DNA of 64,000 nucleotides, taken from NCBI RefSeq assembly GCF_902806695.1, contig NZ_CADCXN010000047.1, positions 1-64,000 of the forward strand. Direction: 5' to 3'. Numbering within the stretch: the stretch's first letter is position 1; every line of letters begins with the position of its first letter. This document shows positions 3 through 36,699 of this stretch, piece by piece. The notes beneath the pieces are model-generated. The model had not been told where the DNA came from, did not search any database, and worked only from the letters and a program-made list of their open reading frames with translations. The DNA is from Candidatus Methylobacter favarea (GTDB taxonomy: Bacteria > Pseudomonadota > Gammaproteobacteria > Methylococcales > Methylomonadaceae). The position numbers were made by a program, and so were the translations under genes.

Positions 3-362
3 GAACTCAGCGTTCAAGACCTGGTAGCCGAAGCCAAACAGCACATTACCGAAGTCAATGCCGCTACAGCCAGGCAACTGCTGGAGGAAGGCAATATCGT
101 TGTTGTTGATGTCCGCGAAGAAAGCGAATACGCCAATGGACATATTGATAATGCCGTTCCGTTGCCGCGCGGGGTACTGGAATTTAAAGTGGGCGGCATT
201 CCCGAACTGGCCGATAAATCCAAAACGGTTTTGGCATATTGCCGCACCGGCGGCCGTTCAGCCTTGGCCGCGCAAACCTTGCAGCAATTAGGCTATAACA
301 ATGTCCTGTCTATGGCAGGCGGGTTTGAAGCATGGCAACAGGCATTTAACCAGAAGTCATAG
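3..362 (+). CDS. Rhodanese-domain protein, C-terminal part
   Basis: A reading frame open from the left edge ends in TAG at 360-362 and encodes a rhodanese (sulfurtransferase) domain. The VVDVREESEY segment and the active-site loop CRTGGRS, whose cysteine carries the persulfide, are both visible, as is the closing GGFEAW motif. The ATG at base 1 is in another frame and stops after eight codons, so the true start lies outside the window. Rhodaneses move sulfane sulfur between thiols, and the sulfide:quinone oxidoreductase gene just downstream suggests it accepts sulfur from sulfide oxidation. That link is inferred from position only. Confidence 0.85.
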   Translation, partial: ELSVQDLVAEAKQHITEVNAATARQLLEEGNIVVVDVREESEYANGHIDNAVPLPRGVLEFKVGGIPELADKSKTVLAYCRTGGRSALAAQTLQQLGYNNVLSMAGGFEAWQQAFNQKS

Positions 363-529
363 TTCAAAGATAAGTTGACTTAACACGCCTTTTAAGTCAA
401 AAGTAAACAGTTGAGAGATAGTCAATCGTCAATAGCTTTACCCGATATCAACCTATAACTATAAATGTGTTTGTTTAATGCGGCGTGCCGTGACCAATAC
501 ACAACAATAACAATAAAATGAGGAGAATT

Positions 530-1783
530 ATGTCAAATCAACACCATACTCTATTGATTGTCGGCGGCGGAGCGGCCGGCGTTTCCATCGCCAATAACAT
601 GCGCCGTCAGAATCCCGATATCAATATCGCCATTATTGAACCTTCTGAAAAGCATTATTACCAGCCGGGATTTACTATTGTCGGCGGCGGCGAATATACC
701 TTAAAGCAGACCCTGCGCAATGAGGCCGATTTAATTCATCCCAGCGTTACCTGGATAAAAGACTTCGCCGAAACCTTTCAGCCTGAGGATAATACCGTCA
801 CGCTACGCTCCGGCGATACGATTGGCTATGATTACCTGGTTGTCTGCCCAGGCCTGCAACTGGATTGGGATAAAATTGCCGGCTTGAAAGAAACCCTGGG
901 CCAAAATAATGTCTGCAGCAACTACTCGCCCGATACGGCCGAGTATACCTGGGAATGTATCAGAAATATCGAATCCGGCACAGCGCTGTTCACGCAGCCG
1001 CCAATGCCAATCAAATGCGCCGGCGCGCCGCAGAAAATCATGTATCTGGCCGCCGACCGCTTCCGCAAAAAAGGCATTCTCGACAAATTTACGATTGAGT
1101 TTCTAAATGCCGGCCCAGGCATGTTCGGCGTGCCTTTTTTCGCGAAAGCCCTGATGAAAGTCGTGACCCACTACGGGATTAAAACGTCCTTTAACCATAA
1201 TCTGGTGGCTATCGACGGCCCCGCCAAGACTGCCACCTTTGAAACCACGGACAGCGACGGCAATAAACAGCAAGTGGTCAGGCAGTTTGACATGATTCAT
1301 GTGACTCCGCCGCAAAGCGCGCCGGATTTTATTAAAAAAAGCCCCCTGGCGAATGCCGCCGGCTGGGTGGACGTGCATCCCAAAACCCTGCAGCACACTA
1401 AATATCCCAATGTTTTTGGCCTGGGCGATGCCGGTTCGACGCCGAATGCCAAAACCGCCGCAGCCGTGCGCAAGCAGGTTCCGGTAGTAGTCGATAATAT
1501 ACTTGGCCTGATAAACAGCCAACAGTTGGCAGAAGGTTATGACGGTTATGGCTCCTGTCCGTTAACTACGTCATTGAATACGGTCATGCTGGCTGAGTTT
1601 GCTTATGACGGCAAAGTCACGCCCTCTTTCCCGTTTCTGGATCCGCGCGAAAACCGCTATATCTGGTGGTGGGGCAAAACCACGGGCTTTCCGTGGCTGT
1701 ACTGGCACATCATGCTCAAAGGCTATCGCATTGATATTCCGCATAAGGAAAGCTACGCGAAAAAATTCATGACCGATAACTGA
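530..1783 (+). CDS. sqr: Sulfide:quinone oxidoreductase, type II
   Basis: A flavoprotein of the SQR family, which oxidises sulfide to persulfide/sulfane sulfur and reduces quinone at the inner membrane. The N-terminal Rossmann motif VGGGAAG binds FAD. Cys163 in KCAGAPQKIMYL and Cys343 in YGSCPLTTS match the redox cysteine pair of the mitochondrial-type (type II) enzymes. The HVTPPQSAPD and KTLQHTKYPNVFGLGD stretches are also typical of that group. An in-frame ATG lies at 518, but AGGAGA sits between it and the ATG at 530, so 530 is chosen (417 aa). The adjoining rhodanese and SulP transporter support a role in sulfide detoxification or oxidation. Confidence 0.93.
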   Translation: MSNQHHTLLIVGGGAAGVSIANNMRRQNPDINIAIIEPSEKHYYQPGFTIVGGGEYTLKQTLRNEADLIHPSVTWIKDFAETFQPEDNTVTLRSGDTIGYDYLVVCPGLQLDWDKIAGLKETLGQNNVCSNYSPDTAEYTWECIRNIESGTALFTQPPMPIKCAGAPQKIMYLAADRFRKKGILDKFTIEFLNAGPGMFGVPFFAKALMKVVTHYGIKTSFNHNLVAIDGPAKTATFETTDSDGNKQQVVRQFDMIHVTPPQSAPDFIKKSPLANAAGWVDVHPKTLQHTKYPNVFGLGDAGSTPNAKTAAAVRKQVPVVVDNILGLINSQQLAEGYDGYGSCPLTTSLNTVMLAEFAYDGKVTPSFPFLDPRENRYIWWWGKTTGFPWLYWHIMLKGYRIDIPHKESYAKKFMTDN

Positions 1784-1907
1784 TCCGCATCCGTCACTCA
1801 GGACAAGCACTAGCGCGCCCTGAGTGATGTTAAAGGTCAGGTAAATCACTATTTCGCACGCCCTTGACTGTAAGGCCGGCGATTTCCTTTACTTGAAACT
1901 AACTGAC

Positions 1908-3638
1908 ATGGCTAATTCGCATGACCACGCGTTGTGGTTAACTTCGTTATTTCCTCCTGCCGGTTGGCTAAAAACCTATAGTCGTCAGACTCTTAACGAT
2001 GACCTGTTTGCCGGCGTTATTACCGCCATTTTACTGGTGCCCCAGGGCATTGCCTATGCCCTGCTGGCGGGCTTGCCGCCGCAGATGGGTTTGTACGCCA
2101 GCATTCTGCCGCCGATGCTTTACGCTGTGCTCGGCACCAGCCGAACCTTATCCGTCGGACCGGTTTCAATCGCGGCCATCATGATTGCCGCCGCCTTGTC
2201 CACGCCGGCAGTTAGCGGTTTGGGCAACGCCGTGCAAAGCGCTCTGATTCTGTCGGCGGAAAGCGGCGCGGTCATGCTGCTGATGGCGGTTCTGCGCATG
2301 GGCGGACTTGTCAATTTTATCAGCCATCCTGTCCTTACGGGCTTTACCAGCGGCGCAGCCATTCTGATTATCTTCAGCCAGCTGCCTCACCTGGCAGGCT
2401 TGAAAAAAGCAGCTTGCGGAATGAATTTTGAATGTTATGGCGAATATCTTCAGACCTTTAATACCGCCGGGTTATCCATTGGACTTATGACCTTGAGCCT
2501 GCTGATGGTTTTTGGCAAGCCCCTCCCCGCTTTTCTTAAAAAAGCAGGCTGGCAATCTGCATCAGTGACTGCCGTCAGCAAAGCCGGACCTTTGCTGTCG
2601 GTTATTCTTGCCGCCTTCGCCGTCCGTTATTTTAAGCTGGCAGAGCTGCATGGCGTGGCTGTTGTGGGCCATATTCCCTCCGGCTTTGCCGGCTTTAGCC
2701 TGGATTTTTTCACGAATGCTGAAAAGTGGCGGCTGTTGTTGCCCTATGCGCTGTTCATTGCCCTGATTGCCTATGTGGAAAGCATTGCCATTGCCAAGGT
2801 GACTGCCCATTTTAGAGGCGAAAAAATCGCTCCGAATCAGGAACTGATTGCGCTGGGCCTGGCGAATATGGCGGCTGCCGTATCGGGCGGCATGCCGGTT
2901 GCAGGGGGATTTAGCCGTACCATGGTCAATTTTTACGCCGGCGCGCGCACGCAAATGGCTATGCTGATCGCGGCCGGTTTGCTTGCCCTGATCGTTATCT
3001 TCTTTAGTTCCTGGTTTGAAACCATCCCGAAAGCAGCGCTGGCGGCCATTATTCTGGTCGCCATCATACCGCTGGTGCGGCTGGACAATATTGTTCATAC
3101 CTGGCGTTATGATCGCGGCGATGGCATCGCTGAAATCATCACCTTGCTGGCGGTTCTGGCGGTGGGTATCGAGGAAGGCATTATGCTGGGTATTGTGCTG
3201 ACCATTCTCAGCCATTTACGAAAAACCAGCCAGCCGCATATTGCCGTAGTCGGCCGCATACCCGATACCGAGCATTACCGGAATATCAAACGGCATGCCG
3301 TGCAAACCTGGAACCATCTGCTCCTGCTGCGGATTGATGAAAGCATCACGTTTGCCAATATTAATTATATTGAAGAGTTCATTGAAGCCCAACTGCTGCG
3401 TCAACCGGCTGTTAAACATATCATTCTTATCTTTACCTCCGTCAGCGATATCGATACCACGGCGCTGGAAGTACTGGAAGAGCTTAATCGTGCCCTGCAG
3501 TCCGCCCGCATTACCCTGCATCTGTCGGAAGCCAAAGGGCCGGTGCTCGACAAACTGAAAAAAACCGATTTCCTCAATCACCTAGCGCCCGGCAAAGTAT
3601 TTTTTCGCACCGAGGATGCGATTAGAGAGCTGGGATGA
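1908..3638 (+). CDS. SulP-family anion (sulfate) transporter with STAS domain
   Basis: A SLC26/SulP-type permease. The N-terminal DLFAGVITAILLVPQGIAYA motif and the following hydrophobic helices form the transport domain. The C-terminal third, from about residue 440, reads as a cytoplasmic STAS domain with the FTSVSDIDTTALEVL core. Members carry sulfate, bicarbonate or other anions; next to SQR, export or import of sulfate is a reasonable inference but the substrate is not readable. A TTG start at 1893 would add five residues. Neither start has a strong ribosome binding site, and the ATG at 1908 is preferred. The gap to sqr is about 124 bases. Confidence 0.9.
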   Translation: MANSHDHALWLTSLFPPAGWLKTYSRQTLNDDLFAGVITAILLVPQGIAYALLAGLPPQMGLYASILPPMLYAVLGTSRTLSVGPVSIAAIMIAAALSTPAVSGLGNAVQSALILSAESGAVMLLMAVLRMGGLVNFISHPVLTGFTSGAAILIIFSQLPHLAGLKKAACGMNFECYGEYLQTFNTAGLSIGLMTLSLLMVFGKPLPAFLKKAGWQSASVTAVSKAGPLLSVILAAFAVRYFKLAELHGVAVVGHIPSGFAGFSLDFFTNAEKWRLLLPYALFIALIAYVESIAIAKVTAHFRGEKIAPNQELIALGLANMAAAVSGGMPVAGGFSRTMVNFYAGARTQMAMLIAAGLLALIVIFFSSWFETIPKAALAAIILVAIIPLVRLDNIVHTWRYDRGDGIAEIITLLAVLAVGIEEGIMLGIVLTILSHLRKTSQPHIAVVGRIPDTEHYRNIKRHAVQTWNHLLLLRIDESITFANINYIEEFIEAQLLRQPAVKHIILIFTSVSDIDTTALEVLEELNRALQSARITLHLSEAKGPVLDKLKKTDFLNHLAPGKVFFRTEDAIRELG

Positions 3639-5713: not shown

Positions 5714-6274
5714 CTAGTCCGGAATCAGGGCGTAGCCGTCCAATTGGTAAATGGGCAGCACTGTCAGGGCCGAGAGCGCGAGCGTAATCGCCGGATTAAC
5801 CCCGGCGGGATCGAAGCCCTTTTCCGCCAGCGCCTGGCCGCAGATATACAGGGTAACGCCGGCGCGTTTGAGCAGCCCGATGAGTTCGGTGTTGGGATTG
5901 TCGCTCCCGTGGAGTTTCCGGTACCGCTCGTCGGCGAGCACGATGGGCGTCGCCGGCCCGTGAATCACCAGCGCGATCTTCAGGCTTTCGGCGGGAACCC
6001 CGGACAGGGCGAAAAGATTAAGAAGGCGCGCCACATGGTCGAGCCCCGGATTGACCTTGTCCGGCGTACCCGCCGCCTTGGTGATGTCGAACAGCACACG
6101 GTAGTCGCGGTCGGGCACTGGCCGCGCCGCGGCGTTGGGATAGGACCGGACTTTCCCGTAGGCCGGAATCGCCGGATACTGCCAGGCGTCCCGTTCCTGG
6201 ACCGCGGAGAGTGCGGGTTGGGCGCAGCCGGACAACGCCAACGTCAGAATACCGACACCGTAAGATAATCTCAT
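5714..6274 (-). CDS. DsrE-like sulfur-carrier-fold lipoprotein
   Basis: A predicted lipoprotein (lipobox LALSGC, mature cysteine near residue 17) followed by a DsrE/DsrF-like domain. The ALVIHGPA strand, the VTLYICGQALAEKGF loop with the conserved cysteine and the closing QLDGYALI are typical of the family. Cytoplasmic DsrE proteins relay sulfur on that cysteine; here the signal sequence places the domain in the periplasm. The start at 6274 follows AGGGGG on the minus strand and begins directly with the signal peptide. It is the last gene of the GC-rich minus-strand block, 92 bases after the MBL/rhodanese gene. Confidence 0.8.
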   Translation of the reverse strand: MRLSYGVGILTLALSGCAQPALSAVQERDAWQYPAIPAYGKVRSYPNAAARPVPDRDYRVLFDITKAAGTPDKVNPGLDHVARLLNLFALSGVPAESLKIALVIHGPATPIVLADERYRKLHGSDNPNTELIGLLKRAGVTLYICGQALAEKGFDPAGVNPAITLALSALTVLPIYQLDGYALIPD

Positions 6275-6365
6275 CAGACCCCCTGGTTTATTTAACTTTA
6301 ACGTTTTACCAAACATCCTCGCCCGCGAAGCTCTCTCGCGGAAAGCCTTCGCGCTATGAACGGCC

Positions 6366-7721
6366 TCATTGGCGCGGACCTTCCACGTCCGTCGTGGTCA
6401 CCGGGTAATCCGGCGTCGTCTCCCTGGAAAGCGCGAGCGCCGACCACGCGGTCATGCCGCCGAGAAGATTTTCGACCCGCGGAAAGCCCTGGCGCTGCAG
6501 GAGGCTTACGGCGAGGCTCGCGCGGTGGCCGACACTGCAGGTCACGGCGATGGGCCGGGACTTATCCAGCGGAGGCGTGATTCTGCCGAGATGCCGGTCG
6601 AGATAACCCACGTAAAGGTGAGCCGCATTCGGGATATGGCCTTCCTCCAGCTCGCTGTCTTCGCGGACGTCAATAACGCGGAACTGATCGAGCCGGGCCT
6701 CGAGCTCGCGGGGCGCGATAGTGCCGGACGTTTCAATAGGAAGGCCCGCATCGCGCCAGGCCTCGAAGCCTCCCGCGAGAATGCCTTGGACGCCGTCCAC
6801 GCCAATGCGGGCGAGGGCGAGCACTGCCTCGTCGAGTGCGCCCGGGCTCTCCAACAGCAGATACACCGGGGTATCCGGGCCTGCAACCCACCCCCCGAAG
6901 ACGGGCAGTCCCGTTGCCCAGATGCTTAAGGCGTTCGGAATATGGCCTCCTGAGAACGCTTCCGGGCTTCGCGTATCGATAACGATGCCGCGGCCCATTT
7001 CGCGCGAGAACGCCTCGGGCTGCAATACCGTGATCTCCTCGGGCCGCCTGGCGAGCGCAATGCTGCCGGCCGAGTTCAGTTTTTCCATGACCGCGAAGTA
7101 GGGCGGCCGCGGCAGGCGCTCTTTGACTTTCGCGGCCATGAATTCTTCGCGCGTCTTCGTGAACACCGGATTGTAAAGGCGCTCAAGCCCGAGCGTGGAT
7201 TCGTCCCGATCCGCCACGTTGCCGCCACAGACGGTGCCGGAACCGTGCGCGGGATAGAGCAGCGCCTGATCGCCGAGGGGCAGCAGCTTTTCATGCACGG
7301 CGTCGTAAAGACGCCCCGCGTTCTCGCCGGTCTTGCCGGGATCCGGAAGATCGGTGCGGCCGGTCTCGCCGATGAATAGGGCATCCCCGGTAAAGACGCC
7401 CCAAGCGCGCTCGGGCGAATCGGGAATGTACAGCGCGTAGCACAGGCTCTCGGGGGTATGGCCCGGCGTGTGAAGCGCGCGCAGCCGCAAGCCTCCGAAC
7501 GAGAGTTCTTCCCTGTCCTTCAGCCGGATGTCGCCGTGGCCGAAGCCTTCATGGGCGCCGTTGACGATCCTCGCACCCGTGATGCGGGCGAGCTCGGAGG
7601 AGCCCAGCACGAAATCCTCCTGCCGGTGGGTCTCTATGACATAGGTAATGGTGAGTTTCTGCGTGCCGGCGAGCCGGAGGTACTCATCGACATCGCGCCC
7701 GCGGGTCGATGACATAGGCAT
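6366..7721 (-). CDS. Metallo-beta-lactamase fold / tandem rhodanese protein, 5' end damaged
   Basis: An MBL-fold hydrolase domain (PGHTPES, FTGDALF and YPAHGSG metal-site loops) followed by two rhodanese domains, the second with active-site CSVGHRAS. This is the layout of persulfide dioxygenase/rhodanese-type proteins. The first metal motif is degenerate, THRQEDF instead of THxHxDH. Upstream of 7721 another frame encodes the expected N-terminus FFQRIKTPGIAHNAYVI, but it starts with ATA at about 7763-7765 behind AAAGGAG, appears to lack roughly nine codons, and joins the main frame only across a one-base shift near 7700. The present start at 7721 is the first ATG of the intact frame. The gene may be a pseudogene or carry sequence errors. 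Confidence 0.75.
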   Translation of the reverse strand: MPMSSTRGRDVDEYLRLAGTQKLTITYVIETHRQEDFVLGSSELARITGARIVNGAHEGFGHGDIRLKDREELSFGGLRLRALHTPGHTPESLCYALYIPDSPERAWGVFTGDALFIGETGRTDLPDPGKTGENAGRLYDAVHEKLLPLGDQALLYPAHGSGTVCGGNVADRDESTLGLERLYNPVFTKTREEFMAAKVKERLPRPPYFAVMEKLNSAGSIALARRPEEITVLQPEAFSREMGRGIVIDTRSPEAFSGGHIPNALSIWATGLPVFGGWVAGPDTPVYLLLESPGALDEAVLALARIGVDGVQGILAGGFEAWRDAGLPIETSGTIAPRELEARLDQFRVIDVREDSELEEGHIPNAAHLYVGYLDRHLGRITPPLDKSRPIAVTCSVGHRASLAVSLLQRQGFPRVENLLGGMTAWSALALSRETTPDYPVTTTDVEGPRQ

Positions 7722-7782
7722 TATGGGCGATGCCCGGCGTCTTGATGCGTTGGAAGAATATGGTAAGGCTCCTTTTTCCACG

Positions 7783-8580
<798 letters not shown>

Positions 8581-8622
8581 AGTTTTTCTCCTTTCGTTAA
8601 ATAAATTGGTTTTTGCTGTCCG

Positions 8623-10179
8623 TTATAACTGGCGCATAAAAGCGACCAGATCCTGCTTTTCCCGGGCATTCAGTTTCAATTCCAGGACAAGATTGAAAAA
8701 TTCCACCGTATCTTCAAGCGTAAGCGCCCGGCCATCATGCAGATAAGGCGGACTATCCTTGATGCCGCGCAAGGTAAAGGTCTTGATCGGGCCGTCGCCG
8801 GGCTCGTTCTTCAAAAAACGCTCAAGATGCAGATCGTGCATCTGCTGATCAAGATAAGTCGGCGGGATATGGCAGCTGCTGCACTGGCCCTTGCCGAAGA
8901 ACACCTGTTCGCCGCGCAGCTCACTCTCGGTCGCCTTGGCTGGGTCAAGGCGTTTGGTTATGGGATTAAGCTTGGGCGCAGGGGGGAAGTCGAGCATGTT
9001 CTGCAACTGCGCCATGTGGCTCACATGGATGCGGTCCAGAACGGGGAAGCCTTTTTTCATGGCATGTATCGGATCGCCGTTAAAATAGGCGGTGCGGAAC
9101 TCGAATTCAGTGAAGTCCTCGACTGAGCGCAGGCTCCGCTTGGAACCGTGGATCTGCTGGTTGAACATTCCCCTGAGGCTGGTGGTATCGAGCCGGAAAC
9201 GCCGCTCCTCCGGCCGGTCGTCAGGATTGAGATGAAACTGCCCGGTGGTATGGCCGTTGACATGGCAGTCAAAACAGGCCACTCCGAGACTTGCCTCGCG
9301 GCTTTTGCGATCATCGGTCGGGTTGAATTCCTCCTGCGGCAGAGGTGTCAACAGAAACTGCAAGCCATTGAGCTGAACTGGCGTCAGGATATCCTTGAAC
9401 AATTTGTAGAAGTTATTGATTGAGACGACTTCGCCACGAGAGACATCGCCGAGCTCGGGGCGGTTCTGCAGGAAAATGGCCGGCGGAAACTCAGGCAGGA
9501 ATTCCTCTGGCAGGTCGAAGTCCACATCAAAACGCTCGAGCCTGGGAAACATCTTGATCTGCATTTTGGGGAAAACCTGACCGCCATTAGACTGCAACGG
9601 ATGCGGCAGTGAAGGGTAAGGGAAAATGCCGCGATCTTTGATCTGTTCAGGCGTGAGCGAAGCAAGCTCATCCCAGCTCGTGTCGTCGGCCAGTTTGACA
9701 GTAGGCCCTACAAGCACGGGTTTGCCGCGCGACATTTTGACCTCCGGGTCAAATTTCGGCTTGAGGTTATAGCGTCGCTCCAGCAACTCGCGCTGAGCCG
9801 ACATCACCGCAGGTTTATTAGCGATCTCCTTTTCCATGATAGCGGCCGGCTCCTGGAAAGGCTTGTCAGCGTTCAGCGGATCCCTATAGAAATCAAAGCC
9901 CGAGATTTTGCCTTGCTTCGGTTGATCTTCAAAGACCGGCGATGAAGGTTTGGCTTCGCGTACATCGAAGAGGTTAGAGCGATCATGCAGGGTTTTCCTC
10001 TGCTCGGGCCGCTCTATAGGAACTGACTGCGGGGTTTGCGCATCAGCCACAGCATCAGCGCGCGTCCTCGTTGGGGGCTCATCCTGAGCCAGGGCGAGCG
10101 TGAAGCTGCCACTGCCCAAAAACACTCCAAGCAATGCCAGCGCCGCGGCGGGTGTAGCCGATAATGGGTTCAGTGTCAT
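8623..10179 (-). CDS. Di-haem cytochrome c peroxidase-like protein
   Basis: An exported protein with signal peptide (hydrophobic residues about 10-32) and two CxxCH haem c sites: CFDCH at about residue 302 and CSSCH at about 433. The closing region TFTLRGIKDSPPYLHDGRALTLEDTVEFF is the signature of the bacterial di-haem peroxidase/MauG superfamily. At 518 aa it is longer than classical peroxidases because of a roughly 250-residue N-terminal part that I do not recognise. AAGGAG precedes ATG 10179, so the 26 upstream in-frame codons are discarded. Within this cluster it could pass electrons during oxidation of a sulfur or other substrate in the periplasm; the substrate is unknown. Confidence 0.85.
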   Translation of the reverse strand: MTLNPLSATPAAALALLGVFLGSGSFTLALAQDEPPTRTRADAVADAQTPQSVPIERPEQRKTLHDRSNLFDVREAKPSSPVFEDQPKQGKISGFDFYRDPLNADKPFQEPAAIMEKEIANKPAVMSAQRELLERRYNLKPKFDPEVKMSRGKPVLVGPTVKLADDTSWDELASLTPEQIKDRGIFPYPSLPHPLQSNGGQVFPKMQIKMFPRLERFDVDFDLPEEFLPEFPPAIFLQNRPELGDVSRGEVVSINNFYKLFKDILTPVQLNGLQFLLTPLPQEEFNPTDDRKSREASLGVACFDCHVNGHTTGQFHLNPDDRPEERRFRLDTTSLRGMFNQQIHGSKRSLRSVEDFTEFEFRTAYFNGDPIHAMKKGFPVLDRIHVSHMAQLQNMLDFPPAPKLNPITKRLDPAKATESELRGEQVFFGKGQCSSCHIPPTYLDQQMHDLHLERFLKNEPGDGPIKTFTLRGIKDSPPYLHDGRALTLEDTVEFFNLVLELKLNAREKQDLVAFMRQL

Positions 10180-10372
10180 GTTCGTCTCCTTATTTCTGTT
10201 ATAGTTATGGTTTATCCGGCCAACACCAGATCGTTGACCTCTTACAGGAACCGGCATCGCCCGATGTCATGGAGCAGAACCCTGCCCCGAGTCTCGCCAT
10301 TTTCCTGCTTTCCTTCATCGACGCGCAATCAGCCTCTATTCCTTTCAGGACTTACGAATTTAATTACTCCCC

Positions 10373-11383
10373 TTAACGAGGAGCCGCCATGCCATAGCTC
10401 TCGATAATGCGGCGGGCGATGTCGGAGCGCAGGAACCGAAGCCAGGCCTTCGCCGTTTCGGAGTGCCTCGCTCTCCTGACCAGCGCCGCCGCCTCAATGC
10501 CGTCCTGGTTATATTCCGGCGCTATGGAAATCAGGCCGATGGGATGCCCGATTTTTTGCTGGAATACAACTTCGCTGAGCCAGGTCACGCCCGCATCGAC
10601 CTGGCCTTTCAGGATCCACAGCGGCGTCTGGCGGTGATGGATCTGGGTCCAAAGCGCTTCGCCGCCTTGGATCTTGTTTTCCAGCACCTCATGGGCCAGT
10701 CTCTCGCCGCCCGCCTGCTGGAGCGCAATCCTGATCTTTTTGGCTATGCCCTCGGTTTCTGGATTGGGAAGGGCGAGCCGGAGGCCGGGTCGTGCGAGGT
10801 CATTGAGGGATTCGATATGCCTGGGATTGCCGTCCTTGACCATGATGGCCAGCCGGTTCTCGATAAAGCTCACCGGAGGCCCCTCCAGCAGGTTCCGCGC
10901 AATTAGTTCCTCGACCTGTTCCCGCCCCGCCTGAACCACGTCGGGCCGAACGGACAGCGTCAGGTTGCCCACGGTGATTGCGTTGCCGCTCTGGAGCTGC
11001 TTCGCCACAACGCCCGGCGGAATCGTCTCGTAGAATACCTTGCCCTTGAGTCCCGGCTGCTCGTTCTCGAAGGCGGCGATAAGTTCGCCCAGGGCGAAGA
11101 AATAATTGCCCCCCGCGAAGATAACGAAGCGCGCCTCGACCGGGTTGCCGTGGAAGTCGGGCATATTATCAACATCCGGCGCCGTAAAGATAACGCCCTT
11201 GCGCGGCGAGGAGGGATCTTCCCCTTCCCAGGGAGGATCGAAATTTTTCGCTTCGATACGAGTCATTGCGGTCGCTTCCAAAAGAAGAATGGTCAGAATC
11301 AGACGCCAAATACTCCCGCGTGCCCGCGCCGAGTGCCATGCGACGTGCTGGGGCTTTGTTTCAATGCCGTTGCGTGCGTCCAT
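10373..11383 (-). CDS. ModA-like periplasmic substrate-binding protein
   Basis: A type 2 periplasmic binding protein resembling the molybdate/sulfate-binding (ModA) group, with an N-terminal hydrophobic export segment (about residues 28-40). The FVIFAGGNYFFALGEL segment, the GNLTLSVRPD loop, and the alternating strand-helix pattern ending in AKAWLRFLRSD all fit. No ABC permease or ATPase gene lies nearby, so it may serve a distant transporter, act as a sensor, or deliver a ligand within this envelope cluster. The ATG overlaps a short upstream frame region with only a weak ribosome binding site; an internal start is possible. Confidence 0.72.
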   Translation of the reverse strand: MDARNGIETKPQHVAWHSARARGSIWRLILTILLLEATAMTRIEAKNFDPPWEGEDPSSPRKGVIFTAPDVDNMPDFHGNPVEARFVIFAGGNYFFALGELIAAFENEQPGLKGKVFYETIPPGVVAKQLQSGNAITVGNLTLSVRPDVVQAGREQVEELIARNLLEGPPVSFIENRLAIMVKDGNPRHIESLNDLARPGLRLALPNPETEGIAKKIRIALQQAGGERLAHEVLENKIQGGEALWTQIHHRQTPLWILKGQVDAGVTWLSEVVFQQKIGHPIGLISIAPEYNQDGIEAAALVRRARHSETAKAWLRFLRSDIARRIIESYGMAAPR

Positions 11384-11400
11384 CAGGCTCTAACCCGGAA

Positions 11401-11607
11401 TCAAGGCGATGGCGTGCAAGCGGCTATGGACACGGCGAGCAAGCACGAAGCCAGCGCTGCAGCTCCGCTAATGGCCCGTATTTGCTGCATGCCGGCCGGT
11501 GACTTTGCCTGCTGACAGCCTGCGGAAGGGAGAGCGTTCGTGAGAAAGCGTTCCGGTTCTAGATGCATCCTGGATGTCTCCTTTTCATAAGGTTGGCTTG
11601 CGGTCAT
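11401..11607 (-). CDS. Possible small lipoprotein, unknown
   Basis: A 68-codon frame with a good AAAGGAG eight bases before ATG 11607; a second possible start (MHLEPERF, 11568) also has AAAAGGAG upstream. The C-terminal part (residues about 40-65) is a hydrophobic helix ending in a lipobox-like AVSIAAC, yet only four residues follow the cysteine before the stop. It could be a tiny entericidin-like lipoprotein, or the signal region of a longer gene cut by a frameshift. It lies 17 bases upstream of the ModA-like gene on the same strand. Confidence 0.35.
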   Translation of the reverse strand: MTASQPYEKETSRMHLEPERFLTNALPSAGCQQAKSPAGMQQIRAISGAAALASCLLAVSIAACTPSP

Positions 11608-11649
11608 GTTCGAACTCCTTTCCGAAAATTCCGGTTCGAGCTTGGAAGA

Positions 11650-11841
11650 TCAGGCCTTGGACAAACCTTCCACTCGATCCTTCACCCTCACCTTTAAAGC
11701 TCCTGGACGAACGGCTTTTACTTCATTTTTAAGGGTTATTTTCAAAATAACCCAGCCATCAGGGCTGTCTGTACGATAACAAACATAGCTGCCGGCTTCC
11801 TTATCGCGCAAAACCATGAAGCCGGGCTCCCATTCTGCCAT
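11650..11841 (-). CDS. Possible short protein next to a large hairpin, unknown
   Basis: A 63-codon frame beginning at MAEWEPGFMV, whose ATG lies inside the near-perfect hairpin at 11822-11873. The product has alternating hydrophobic and charged residues (WVILKITLKNEV) that look like beta strands. The frame is also open further upstream to 11907, through the whole hairpin. No family recognised. It may be a relic of a gene interrupted by insertion of the hairpin element. Confidence 0.25.
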   Translation of the reverse strand: MAEWEPGFMVLRDKEAGSYVCYRTDSPDGWVILKITLKNEVKAVRPGALKVRVKDRVEGLSKA

Positions 11842-11873
11842 TGCCGCTTTGCAATGACAGAATGGGAGCCCGG
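11822..11873. repeat. Near-perfect 22-bp stem hairpin
   Basis: The arms CCGGGCTCCCATTCTG (11822-11837) and its exact complement (11858-11873) are extended by CATTGC/GCAATG across one mismatch, leaving a six-base loop CGCTTT. It lies 30 bases beyond the stop of the DUF2490 gene and could terminate it, but there is no T-run on either side, so a REP-like palindromic repeat is equally possible. Confidence 0.7.
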
Positions 11874-11903
11874 AATGGCATCGGCACTTTGCGGCGCCGC
11901 GTT

Positions 11904-12614
11904 TCAATAATCGAGCTGGAGGTTGAGGGACAGAATATGACTCATCAAATCCTCCCGCTCCGCCCTGCGGATATACTGATTCATATAACCGATTTCCATC
12001 TCGATATTTTCGTCGAAATGATAGCCGATTCCGGCAAATGCCCGGTTTTGATCGAACCCGGAATCTATCATGCCCGTGGTATTGACATTGACGAAATACT
12101 CGTCCGAACCGACCAGCCTGAAATCCGGCGCAAAATCCAAAGGATAGGACAGCTTCAACAGCTGCCGGAAGCGGTAGGCGACATCCGGTTGATCGGTGAA
12201 GCGTTCCTCGAACCGGCTGCGGCTGGTGAACTTGCCCAAGGAAGTCTTGCCGGTCCAGAGGAACTGCTGCCAGATACGATTCTCGTTGTAGGAAGCGTCG
12301 GTAAACGGTTCTATCGTCGGAACAAAGGCATACCCCAGCCAGATGCTCGCATGCTCATTCAGGGAATAACCCAAACCCGGACGCAATATACCCTGGGATA
12401 ATGACGAGGTATCGTTGCCGAACCGCCCCTGTCCTTCCAGCCAGTAGCGAAAATCCTTTAAATCGGGGTGGATTACTTCGAGGCTCCCTTTCGCCTCAAT
12501 GGCAGACCAGGTCTGGAAGTCTTCTGCGGTTGAAGCTGCCTGGACGGAGCCCAGGAATGCCATTCCCAGAATGCTGAAGCGACCGGCGATTGAGGTTGAG
12601 GTTGAATGTCTCAT
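11904..12614 (-). CDS. DUF2490 outer-membrane beta-barrel protein
   Basis: An exported protein with a signal peptide ending near VQAA (about residue 28) and repeated amphipathic strands typical of the DUF2490 family of outer-membrane barrels. The LGYSLNEHASIWLGYAFVP and RSRFEERF segments and the aromatic C-terminal residue (LDY) fit an outer-membrane protein. GGAGG lies seven bases before ATG 12614, which excludes 18 upstream in-frame codons. It is the first gene of the minus-strand GC-rich block and may act as its outer-membrane component. Ligand unknown. Confidence 0.82.
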   Translation of the reverse strand: MRHSTSTSIAGRFSILGMAFLGSVQAASTAEDFQTWSAIEAKGSLEVIHPDLKDFRYWLEGQGRFGNDTSSLSQGILRPGLGYSLNEHASIWLGYAFVPTIEPFTDASYNENRIWQQFLWTGKTSLGKFTSRSRFEERFTDQPDVAYRFRQLLKLSYPLDFAPDFRLVGSDEYFVNVNTTGMIDSGFDQNRAFAGIGYHFDENIEMEIGYMNQYIRRAEREDLMSHILSLNLQLDY

Positions 12615-26172: not shown

Positions 26173-27876
26173 TTAAAACAGAAAATACCGTTGCGCCAGG
26201 GGTAATACCGACATAGGCTCACAAATCAGTAACTGGCCGTCTGCCCGCACTTCATAGGTTTGCGGATCCACTTCAATTTTTGGCAGATAAGTGTTATGAA
26301 TCAAATCCGCCTTGCCGATAGTGCGGGTATTAAAGACGGGACTGATCATGTTGCTTAGCTTCAGCAAATCCGCCACGCCGTTATCGTAAGCCGCTTTGGA
26401 AAGAAAGGTTATGCAGCTGGCCGAACGCGCCTTGCCGAAAGCTGCAAACATGGGCCGGTAATGAACCGGCTGCGGCGTTGGAATGGAGGCGTTGGGATCT
26501 CCCATAGGCGCAGCAGCAATAAAACCGGCTTTAATAATTAAACTGGGCTTGGCCCCAAAAAAAGCCGGTTTCCATAAGACCAGATCGGCCAGTTTACCGA
26601 CTTCAATCGAGCCTACCTGAGCGCTGATGCCATGCGTGATCGCCGGATTGATCGTATATTTCGCGATATAACGTTTAACCCTGAAATTATCATTCCGGGA
26701 GGTATCTTCCTTTAAACTGCCGCGCTGCACTTTCATTTTGTGCGCGGTTTGCCAGGTCCGGCAAATCACTTCGCCCACTCTGCCCATCGCCTGCGAATCC
26801 GATGCAATCATCGAGAAAGCGCCCAAATCATGCAGAATATCTTCCGCAGCAATGGTTCCCCGGCGAATCCTGCTTTCGGCAAAAGCCACGTCTTCGGCGA
26901 TTTTAGGATCCAAATGATGGCAAACCATCAGCATATCCAGATGCTCGTCTATGGTGTTGACGGTAAAAGGCCGCATCGGATTGGTCGAAGACGGCAGTAT
27001 ATTGGCCTCGCCGCAGGCCTTTATGATGTCCGGCGAATGACCGCCGCCCGCCCCTTCGGTATGATAAGTATGTATGGCCCGTCCTTTCATAGCCGCCAGG
27101 GTGTCTTCGACAAAACCGGACTCATTCAAGGTATCGGTAGGAATGGCGACCTGCACGTCATAGTGATCGGCCACATTCAGGCAGTTGTCGATGGCGGCAG
27201 GCGTCGTTCCCCAGTCCTCATGCAGTTTCAAACCGATTGCCCCGGCTTTAACCTGCTCTTCAAGCGCCAGCGGCAAACTGGCATTGCCTTTACCTAGAAA
27301 GCCCAGGTTCATCGGAAAGGAATCGGCCGCCTGCAGCATACGCTGGATATTCCAAACGCCGGGAGTGCAGGTTGTCGCATTGGTTCCCGTTGCAGGGCCT
27401 GTACCGCCCCCTAACATGGTTGTCACGCCCGACATCAAGGCTTCTTCAATCTGTTGAGGACAAACGAAATGGATATGCGAGCCCACGCCGCCGGCCGTGA
27501 CTATCTGCCCTTCTCCCGCGATAACTTCCGTACCGGGCCCGATAATAATGGTTACATTGGCCTGGGTATCGGGATTGCCCGCTTTGCCGATAGCGGCAAT
27601 GCGCCCATCCTTGATGCCGATGTCGGCTTTGACGATCCCCCAGTTATCGACAATCAGCGCATTGCTAATGACGGTGTCGACAGATTCGCCGCAGCCGCAT
27701 TGGCTTTGACCCATACCGTCGCGTATCACCTTGCCGCCGCCAAATTTGACCTCGTCACCGTAAACCGTATGGTCCGCTTCAACTTCAATAATAAGGCCGG
27801 TATCGGCCAATCGCAGCCTGTCGCCCGTGGTAGGCCCATACATTTCAGCGTAACCGCGGCGATCCAGACGGCTCAT
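26173..27876 (-). CDS. ureC: Urease alpha (catalytic) subunit with altered active-site residues
   Basis: The 567-aa catalytic subunit is full length and colinear with Klebsiella UreC. Lys217 in GLKLHEDW (to be carbamylated), His134/His136 in SHIHF, His272 in TYHTEG, the CHHLD flap with His320 and Asp360 in SDSQAMG are all present. However, residue 246, a nickel-1 ligand histidine in known ureases ([12 protein letters not shown]), is proline here (codon CCT, 27139-27141). Asp132 before the HxH motif is Gly. Further non-consensus changes include CTPGVW, STNPMRP and RRGTIAAED. As written the dinuclear site would lose a ligand, so activity is doubtful unless these are sequence errors. Start and neighbours (ureB overlaps by four bases) are normal. 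Confidence 0.93.
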
Positions 27877-36344: not shown

Positions 36345-36384
36345 CAGTTGATTAAATTTGATTAACGCCTGCAATATCTTATAA

Positions 36385-36580
36385 TGCCTGTTACTTTCAG
36401 GTTCCAGAGGGTTTTTACACCTAATGGTTAAACGGGAAGTCGGTAAGGTTACGGCCAAATCCGACGCTGCCCCCGCAACGGTATATTAAGTAAAGAGTCA
36501 TCTTATGCCACTGTGTTATCAGCATGGGAAGGTGATGATTCAGGCCCACGCCGCTTATAAGCCCGGAGACCGGCCCGAAA
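36385..36580 (+). promoter_or_regulatory. Cobalamin (AdoCbl-type) riboswitch
   Basis: The conserved elements appear in order: GGTTCCAGAGGG (36400-36411), TAAACGGGAAG, GACGCTGCCCCCGCAACGG (36463-36481), GAAGGTGATGATT, and the B12 box AAGCCCGGAGACCGGCC (36559-36575). Downstream, CTGTCTGCGAAAAAGACAG and a CGGAGG/CCTCCG pair could form the expression platform before btuB. Cobalamin binding would repress btuB and btuM. Confidence 0.93.
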
Positions 36581-36699
36581 GTATAATTCGGTACAGCGGA
36601 GGGCTGTCTGCGAAAAAGACAGTGCTTCTTGGTATCCCACTTCTTCTTTTGTCCTCCGTTGTGTAAACAACTATTTGCGCGGGCGGCGCCGAGGACAAC

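What the first reader, a model, noticed from the sequence alone, without database searches (positions are those of the whole stretch)
5714..12614. GC-rich envelope cluster for sulfur or redox chemistry
Six co-oriented genes encode a DsrE-like lipoprotein, an MBL/rhodanese protein, a DUF1264 lipoprotein, a di-haem peroxidase-like cytochrome, a ModA-like binding protein and a DUF2490 outer-membrane protein. Most products are exported and several are linked to sulfane-sulfur handling. The block is richer in G+C than its neighbours and sits beside SQR, rhodanese and SulP genes. I know of no described system with this composition; it could bind and oxidise a sulfur compound in the periplasm.
Basis: partly seen in the sequence, partly recalled or inferred. 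Interest (0 to 1): 0.65.

Follow-up and report, generated by a model that had tools for sequence, protein, structure and literature searches.

The report
Mosaic sulfur island with peroxidase–DUF1264 pair
A methane-eating bacterium carries a patchwork of sulfur-handling envelope genes, and comparing it with relatives shows that an unstudied protein family (DUF1264) recurs beside haem peroxidases, which suggests a testable enzyme–partner pair.

Summary
The six co-oriented genes are there and GC-rich (GC3 z 3 to 7 against other ORFs of the window), but not as one conserved system: no other locus examined has the whole set. The block looks like a mosaic and is not beside recD in the sister species. 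DsrE and SBP recur together in sulfur clusters of alpha-, beta- and gammaproteobacteria, near DoxDA-type thiosulfate:quinone oxidoreductase or c-type cytochromes. The MBL–rhodanese gene resembles those of YeeE/YedE clusters; its MBL site is degenerate and its 5' end is broken here. DUF2490 is probably outside the unit. The surprising part is DUF1264 with a di-haem c-type peroxidase. In the methanotroph family two divergent DUF1264 types each pair with a different peroxidase: all 18 type-b loci that I fetched have an MbnH/MauG-like gene downstream on the same strand; type-a DUF1264 was found only in genomes with the long peroxidase (11 of 12 such genomes, of 151). This resembles CorA/CorB and MbnP/MbnH, with DUF1264 as a new partner. 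Outside the family the pairing was seen in one of seven class loci. Some of these loci contain SQR, persulfide dioxygenase or YeeE genes, so a sulfur role is favoured but not shown.

The parts
5714..6274 (-). Exported DsrE-like lipoprotein (LSGC lipobox and YICGQ Cys read by eye)
   Evidence: Pfam DsrE 40.5 bits; homologues up to 48% identical in class genomes and about 40-46% in the plasmid rows listed, several directly next to the SBP gene
6366..7721 (-). MBL-fold + two rhodanese domains, MBL motif degenerate (HRQEDF), second rhodanese has a CxxGxR loop; 5' end broken, so perhaps a pseudogene or N-terminally truncated
   Evidence: 54% identical to a plasmid homologue next to YeeE/YedE
7690..7762 (-). 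Remnant of the MBL N-terminal peptide in another reading frame (approximate ends)
   Evidence: three-frame translation, compared with relatives
7783..8580 (-). DUF1264 (OBAP family) lipoprotein, type a
   Evidence: Pfam 218.7 bits, cut-off 25; alignment A2
8623..10182 (-). Exported 519-residue di-haem c-type cytochrome, peroxidase-like (named 'cytochrome B6' or 'cytochrome c peroxidase' in plasmid records)
   Evidence: two CXXCH motifs invariant in 30 sequences; C-terminal similarity to MauG/MbnH models, far below cut-offs, and to PDB di-haem peroxidases; names
10373..11383 (-). Orphan solute-binding protein (SBP_bac_11), weakly nearest to sulfate/thiosulfate binders
   Evidence: context
11822..11873 (.). 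Hairpin with 23-bp arms that separates DUF2490 from the rest
   Evidence: the repeat finder
11904..12614 (-). DUF2490 outer-membrane protein; probably not part of the unit
   Evidence: Pfam 189.4 bits; DNA matches to it in many family genomes that show no match to the other genes
3..362 (+). Rhodanese, cut by the contig start; with SQR and SulP the neighbouring sulfide genes
   Evidence: a similar trio surrounds DUF1264-peroxidase in G306
518..1783 (+). Sulfide:quinone oxidoreductase-like (type III-like)
   Evidence: NCBIfam NF049943 237.5 bits, below its cut-off of 525
1893..3638 (+). SulP sulfate permease
   Evidence: TIGR00815 407 bits, cut-off 380.45

Best explanation
It is a horizontally assembled envelope island beside a rhodanese-SQR-SulP sulfide locus in a Methylobacter-like methanotroph. 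It joins three older pieces. (A) DUF1264 lipoprotein + di-haem c-type peroxidase: DUF1264 is most likely the dedicated partner of the peroxidase, which modifies it or keeps its metal/redox site active, in the manner of CorA/CorB and MbnP/MbnH. (B) Exported DsrE-like sulfur carrier + orphan sulfate/thiosulfate-type binding protein that, in relatives, sits near DoxDA-type TQO or c-type cytochromes, with no ABC permease listed beside it. (C) An MBL-rhodanese sulfurtransferase of YeeE/YedE clusters, damaged here. The likely joint role is to bind, carry and oxidise or detoxify sulfane sulfur (thiosulfate, polysulfide) in the periplasm. Shown by sequence comparison: composition, mosaic make-up, recurrence of A and B, sulfur neighbours of some relatives. 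Inferred: horizontal origin, that A and B work together here, the substrate, the chemistry, and any function of C.
For: Pair A, type b: of 21 methanotroph-family DUF1264 loci (20 fetched + own C87), all 18 with type-b DUF1264 (62-77% identical to the own copy) have a CCP_MauG gene downstream on the same strand, 16 with gaps of 19-272 nt and 2 at 1160-1171 nt with a probable outer-membrane protein between. The 22 genomes searched hold 2-11 CCP_MauG matches each, so adjacency by chance is about 1% or less per locus (my reckoning). Type a: DUF1264 in 11 genomes, all among the 12 with the long cytochrome, of 151 (Fisher 7e-16); adjacent in 5 of 8 that can be judged, in both orders. Class: 6 of 8 DUF1264 genomes have the full-length cytochrome against 14 of 274 overall (p 1.4e-7). 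Relatives are not independent and one search scored two places per genome, so the p-values are only indicative. Module B: DsrE directly beside SBP in 4 of 8 SBP stretches, a DoxD+DoxA protein in 3 of 8, c-type cytochromes within 2 kb downstream in 4 of 8. Sulfur context of DUF1264: G306 has rhodanese-DUF1264-peroxidase-SQR-SulP in a row; also own C87, G276, G356, G028, P. fluorescens pG69, Azospirillum p1. Mosaic: other genes beside recD in sister G276; GC3 highest in DsrE, MBL and SBP, for which no family relative showed up.
Against: Most cytochrome homologues show no DUF1264 in the stretch held: 76 of 80. Outside the methanotroph family a full-length peroxidase lies near DUF1264 in 1 (G028) of 7 class loci opened, in 0 of 4 plasmid stretches and in 0 of 5 phylum loci by longest-ORF calls. 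Sulfur genes are absent from 2 of those 4 plasmid stretches. In G361, G324 and G345 type-a DUF1264 and cytochrome lie far apart on one contig. Of 18 type-b loci only 3 have clear sulfur genes in the stretch and one more (L314) has YeeE/TauE-like genes about 5 kb away by my reading; two MBL hits there look like GloB. One of the 6 class genomes (G036) rests on a weak DUF1264 match with stops and one (G236) on a DUF1264 in two pieces. The MBL gene is broken. No DoxD in this genome. The SBP scores as well with ModA (28.0 bits) as with CysP (30.0), both below cut-off. AlphaFold models were too poor to use.
Confidence: 0.5

Rival explanations
1. Chance landing strip: unrelated horizontally acquired genes accumulated next to recD, with no shared function; part of it is decaying. 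(The rivals are not mutually exclusive.)
For: Whole set found nowhere else in the loci examined; GC3 differs from gene to gene; broken MBL 5' end; stray lipoprotein-like ORF fragment upstream of the SBP gene, read by eye.
Against: Five genes co-oriented with gaps of 42-190 bp (coordinates); four of the six separately have homologues in sulfur clusters; DUF1264-peroxidase pair recurs.
Confidence: 0.3
2. The DUF1264-peroxidase pair serves copper handling as CorA/CorB and MopE/SACCP do in methanotrophs, and the sulfur genes are only neighbours.
For: Gene arrangement as in CorA/CorB (PMC3912023, passages); invariant His, Cys and W-H-x-H in both DUF1264 types; own C87 peroxidase closest to MbnH (272.7 bits).
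Against: No sequence similarity of DUF1264 to PDB chains at E up to 1, nor by profile except one unrelated chain at E 0.75, although CorA and MopE have solved structures; neighbours in several loci are SQR, PDO-like or YeeE genes.
Confidence: 0.2
3. General oxidative-stress defence: the cytochrome removes peroxide and DUF1264 is a stress lipoprotein.
For: Cytochrome spread over several phyla with 65-85% identity in the best 80 of 106 relatives; sometimes near stress-type genes by my reading or by annotation.
Against: Does not explain the pairing of two different DUF1264 types with two different peroxidases.
Confidence: 0.2

Closest known systems
CorA/CorB and MopE/SACCP (methanotroph copper protein + di-haem peroxidase)
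   Same: Exported small protein encoded with a di-haem peroxidase in gammaproteobacterial methanotrophs; both small proteins have a conserved Trp and His residues (W-H-x-H in DUF1264).
   Different: DUF1264 shows no detectable sequence similarity to PDB chains; copper and kynurenine not tested; sulfur genes in several neighbourhoods. CorA/CorB and MopE from passages of PMC3912023.
MbnP/MbnH pair (TIGR04052/TIGR04039)
   Same: Peroxidase of the type-b pair is closest to MbnH (272.7 bits) and sits beside a partner gene.
   Different: Below the MbnH cut-off of 362.85; the partner is DUF1264; the window's 519-aa cytochrome scores only 25.7 bits. Pair description from passages of PMC3621798.
SBP with DoxDA-type thiosulfate:quinone oxidoreductase, and DsrE-SBP sulfur clusters on plasmids
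   Same: Same DsrE and SBP families, adjacent in 4 of 8 stretches.
   Different: Here DsrE and SBP are separated by three genes and no DoxD was found in the genome.
CstB/Blh-type persulfide dioxygenase-rhodanese proteins (CstB recalled; Blh from NCBIfam NF040641)
   Same: MBL + rhodanese architecture; best PDB matches 3tp9 and 3r2u.
   Different: HxHxDH ligands replaced (HRQEDF) and 5' end broken; Blh score 29.8, cut-off 625; dioxygenase activity not expected.

Membership tests
DUF1264 (PF06884, OBAP) | Pfam score above cut-off over most of the model | tested here: met
   218.7 bits, cut-off 25, positions 2-170 of 171
Di-haem peroxidase (bCCP/MauG) | two CXXCH haem motifs in an exported protein | tested here: met
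   C303xxCH and C434xxCH invariant in 30 sequences; signal peptide judged by eye
Di-haem peroxidase (bCCP/MauG) | Pfam CCP_MauG (PF03150) match | tested here: not met
   no Pfam family for the window cytochrome; the own C87 peroxidase does match, 190 bits
MbnH (TIGR04039) | score above 362.85 | tested here: not met
   window cytochrome 25.7, own C87 peroxidase 272.7
CorA/MopE | sequence similarity of the partner protein | tested here: not met
   no PDB match for DUF1264 at E up to 1; profile search gave only an unrelated chain at E 0.75; indirect, since CorA/MopE sequences were not compared one to one
CorA/MopE | copper site with kynurenine from Trp | not testable with these tools
   needs protein
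ModA (TIGR01256) | score above 62.5 | tested here: not met
   28.0 bits
CysP/sulfate-binding protein (NF008106, TIGR00971) | score above 308 / 155.5 | tested here: not met
   30.0 and 27.5 bits
DsrE (PF02635) | Pfam score above cut-off | tested here: met
   40.5 bits, cut-off 22.7
Persulfide dioxygenase (ETHE1/CstB) | HxHxDH metal-binding motif | tested here: not met
   THRQEDF
Rhodanese sulfurtransferase | CxxGxR active loop | tested here: met
   CSVGHR in the second rhodanese domain
Thiosulfate:quinone oxidoreductase system | DoxD in the genome | tested here: not met
   0 matches to PF04173 in the own genome, 134 contigs

The most novel reading that the evidence does not exclude
DUF1264 (OBAP) lipoproteins are protein substrates of MauG/MbnH-type di-haem enzymes: the peroxidase oxidises the invariant Trp of the W-H-x-H motif, building a new kind of metal site that is used for sulfane-sulfur or copper chemistry in the methanotroph envelope. 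This would give a biochemical function to a family that, as I recall, also holds plant seed oil-body-associated proteins.
Probability: 0.2. Interest if true: 0.8.

Novelty: new variant of a known kind. Interest (0 to 1): 0.5.

Why it matters
Di-haem peroxidases that modify a partner protein are few and chemically unusual (MauG; CorB suspected; MbnH recalled). A further partner family without detectable similarity to them, recurring with two different di-haem peroxidases, would widen that enzyme class, give a functional handle on bacterial DUF1264/OBAP proteins, and point to how methanotrophs handle sulfide at oxic-anoxic interfaces. The island itself shows how sulfur modules are shuffled between proteobacteria.

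Tried and rejected
Rejected: the six genes as one conserved system. Rejected: SBP filed as ModA. Rejected: MBL as an active persulfide dioxygenase. Rejected: L304 and L314 as persulfide dioxygenase neighbours, their MBL proteins look like GloB by my reading. Led nowhere: AlphaFold of the cytochrome (mean pLDDT 46) and of DUF1264 (40, from only 4 sequences), so no fold search was run; PDB profile search with DUF1264; clustering of cytochrome neighbourhoods showed mostly lineage-specific synteny; Rfam and tRNA scans showed nothing in the block. Caveats kept: W-H-x-H also occurs in a DUF1264 with no peroxidase in the opened stretch (L328), so it is not specific to the pair. Plasmid gene tables are incomplete. 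Dropped before counting: short hits in the cytochrome's region in G381 and G302; the C-terminal-only cytochrome matches among the 77 of 274 genomes with any match; L282 and L283, fetched and clustered but neighbours not read; L272, which has no annotation. Literature: 13 papers hold 'DUF1264' (one seen in passages), 'OBAP family protein' in none; the listings, and passages of PMC3912023 and PMC3621798, showed no report of this pair. The library is not all of print.
Full report
What is there. The window is the start of contig C47 of a 4.07-Mb genome whose closest named cytochrome relatives are Methylobacter marinus and M. luteus. Mean GC3 of 20 long reference ORFs at 20-64 kb is 0.54; it is 0.79, 0.77, 0.73, 0.69, 0.66 and 0.65 for DsrE, MBL, SBP, DUF1264, cytochrome and DUF2490; the SDR gene to the left is raised too, 0.64. 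To the left are a rhodanese cut by the contig start, an SQR-like gene and SulP.

Corrections. The MBL-rhodanese reading frame opens inside the end of DUF1264; the expected N-terminal peptide lies in another frame and is shorter than in relatives. Whether this is a pseudogene, a truncated protein or an assembly error is open. Its MBL motif is THRQEDF; the 6 relatives aligned have HRQEDF, HRNEDY (2), HRNEDL, HCHEDL and HIHADY, so loss of HxHxDH is typical of the subfamily. DUF2490 is followed by a strong hairpin and matches many family genomes that show no match to the other genes; I leave it out of the unit.

The set as a whole was not found elsewhere. Among 80 loci with the cytochrome (the best 80 of 106), 4 have DUF1264 in the stretch held and none has DsrE or SBP; one has a 28% MBL-rhodanese match (some stretches are only 3-6 kb). 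In a DNA search of 151 family genomes no genome other than the own one showed a match to the DsrE or SBP part; the MBL part had one 52-bp hit in G289. Only two places per genome were scored there, so this is weak; G276, G301 and G345, searched with 34-40 places each, showed none. In the sister species G276 the neighbour of recD on that side is a sensor/regulator pair by my reading, not these genes.

Module B. DsrE-like and SBP genes are neighbours in Komagataeibacter pGX3, Paraburkholderia pBIL and the unnamed gammaproteobacteria G118 and G040 (positions), that is 4 of 8 SBP stretches that I could read (L263, L264, L265, L266, L271, L273, L274, L281). A DoxD+DoxA protein follows SBP in 3 of the 8 (Gluconobacter pGOX1, G118, G007, Pfam), c-type cytochromes lie within 2 kb downstream in 4. 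None of the five annotated stretches lists an ABC permease (plasmid tables are incomplete). The SBP is nearest to sulfate and thiosulfate binders only weakly.

Module A, type b. The own genome has a second DUF1264 at C87 with a di-haem peroxidase 19 nt downstream, then a small ORF, a SoxB-like protein (154.9 bits, cut-off 550) and an MBL protein with HxHxDH. Of the 55 family genomes with a DUF1264 match, 20 further loci were fetched; 17 carry the same type b and all 17 have the peroxidase downstream on the same strand; the other three (L318-L320, one genus) have another DUF1264 and no match to the peroxidase. The 18 loci come from ten genera. In L303 and L307 a gene lies between; the L307 product matches OMP_b-brl above cut-off, the L303 product below. 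The two peroxidases scanned, own and G306, are CCP_MauG; the own one is closest to MbnH, below its cut-off. The 22 genomes checked carry 2-11 CCP_MauG matches.

Module A, type a. The window's type behaves alike with a different peroxidase. The long cytochrome is in 12 of 151 family genomes, the type-a DUF1264 in 11, all 11 among the 12 (counts by score from the tables). They are adjacent or nearly so in the window, G276, G295, G336 and G415, far apart on one contig in G361, G324 and G345, and on different contigs, so unknown, in G323, G301 and G400. Order is cytochrome-DUF1264 in the window and G276 and the reverse, with a small ORF between, in G295 and G336, so adjacency is not just inherited order. 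In 274 class genomes the full-length cytochrome is in 14 and DUF1264 in 8, 6 shared; G036 is a weak match with stops and G236 is in two pieces. In G028, another family, cytochrome, a ferritin-like gene, an MBL gene with HVHADH and DUF1264 follow each other. In the other six class loci opened (L338-L343) neither peroxidase query matched.

Sulfur context of DUF1264. G306 has rhodanese-DUF1264-peroxidase-SQR-SulP in a row; a like rhodanese-SQR-SulP trio flanks the window's island. G356 has SQR, MBL-rhodanese with HVHADH, a YeeE/YedE-like ORF (by clustering), peroxidase and DUF1264. G276 has DUF1264-cytochrome beside an MBL-rhodanese gene on the other strand, cytochrome bd and YeeE/YedE-like genes. 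P. fluorescens pG69 and Azospirillum p1 have DUF1264 (67% and 62% identical) among rhodanese or sulfurtransferase, MBL, TauE, YeeE/YedE and ArsR genes; G171 has it near two cytochromes and a TauE-like gene by my reading. Against: the Skermanella and Mycetohabitans stretches, four class loci (L338, L339, L340, L342; no hit with my query set) and the five phylum loci (ORF lists only) show no such genes.

Mechanism. In methanotrophs CorA and MopE are encoded with di-haem peroxidases and carry a Trp oxidised to kynurenine beside a copper site (PMC3912023, passages); MbnP/MbnH is a related pair whose role was unknown in 2013 (PMC3621798, passages; later work on MbnH as a Trp-oxidising enzyme is recalled, not read). 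DUF1264 types a and b share invariant His and Cys residues and a W-H-x-H motif. I therefore think that DUF1264 is the peroxidase's partner (likely), and that the Trp is modified (possible). DsrE, SBP and rhodanese would carry and hand on sulfane sulfur produced by SQR (inferred). A Methylobacter strain is reported, by its title, to consume more methane with sulfide (PMC12211021, search listing only).

Verdict. Observation mostly right, interpretation partly supported: a mosaic of sulfur-linked modules rather than a new six-gene system, with a recurrent DUF1264-di-haem peroxidase pair as the part worth pursuing.

Noticed in passing
window 36382-36592 (+): Cobalamin riboswitch, 100.2 bits.
   Followed up: no
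window 27441-27726 (+): Rfam 5_ureB_sRNA match, 91 bits; may reflect a conserved urease gene rather than a real sRNA (not checked).
   Followed up: no
window 11401-11569 (-): Short lipoprotein-like ORF (lipobox read by eye) just upstream of the SBP gene; may be a gene remnant.
   Followed up: no
L033-L112: The 519-aa di-haem cytochrome is found in records named Methylobacter, Nitrosospira, Nitrospira, Geomonas, Verrucomicrobia and Planctomycetes at 65-85% identity; the window copy has no Pfam match: wide horizontal spread of an unnamed peroxidase family is likely (some MAG labels may be contamination).
   Followed up: partly
L294 (own genome C87): Locus with cytochrome bd-like genes, PAS regulator, DUF1264, MbnH-like peroxidase, SoxB-like protein and MBL with HxHxDH.
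   Followed up: partly
L303 9087-10094, L307 7576-8577: A probable outer-membrane beta-barrel gene lies between DUF1264 and the peroxidase in two genera.
   Followed up: partly
L291 10252-10692: YgaP-like transmembrane protein (PF11127, 28.3 bits) between DUF1264 and the cytochrome in G295.
   Followed up: no
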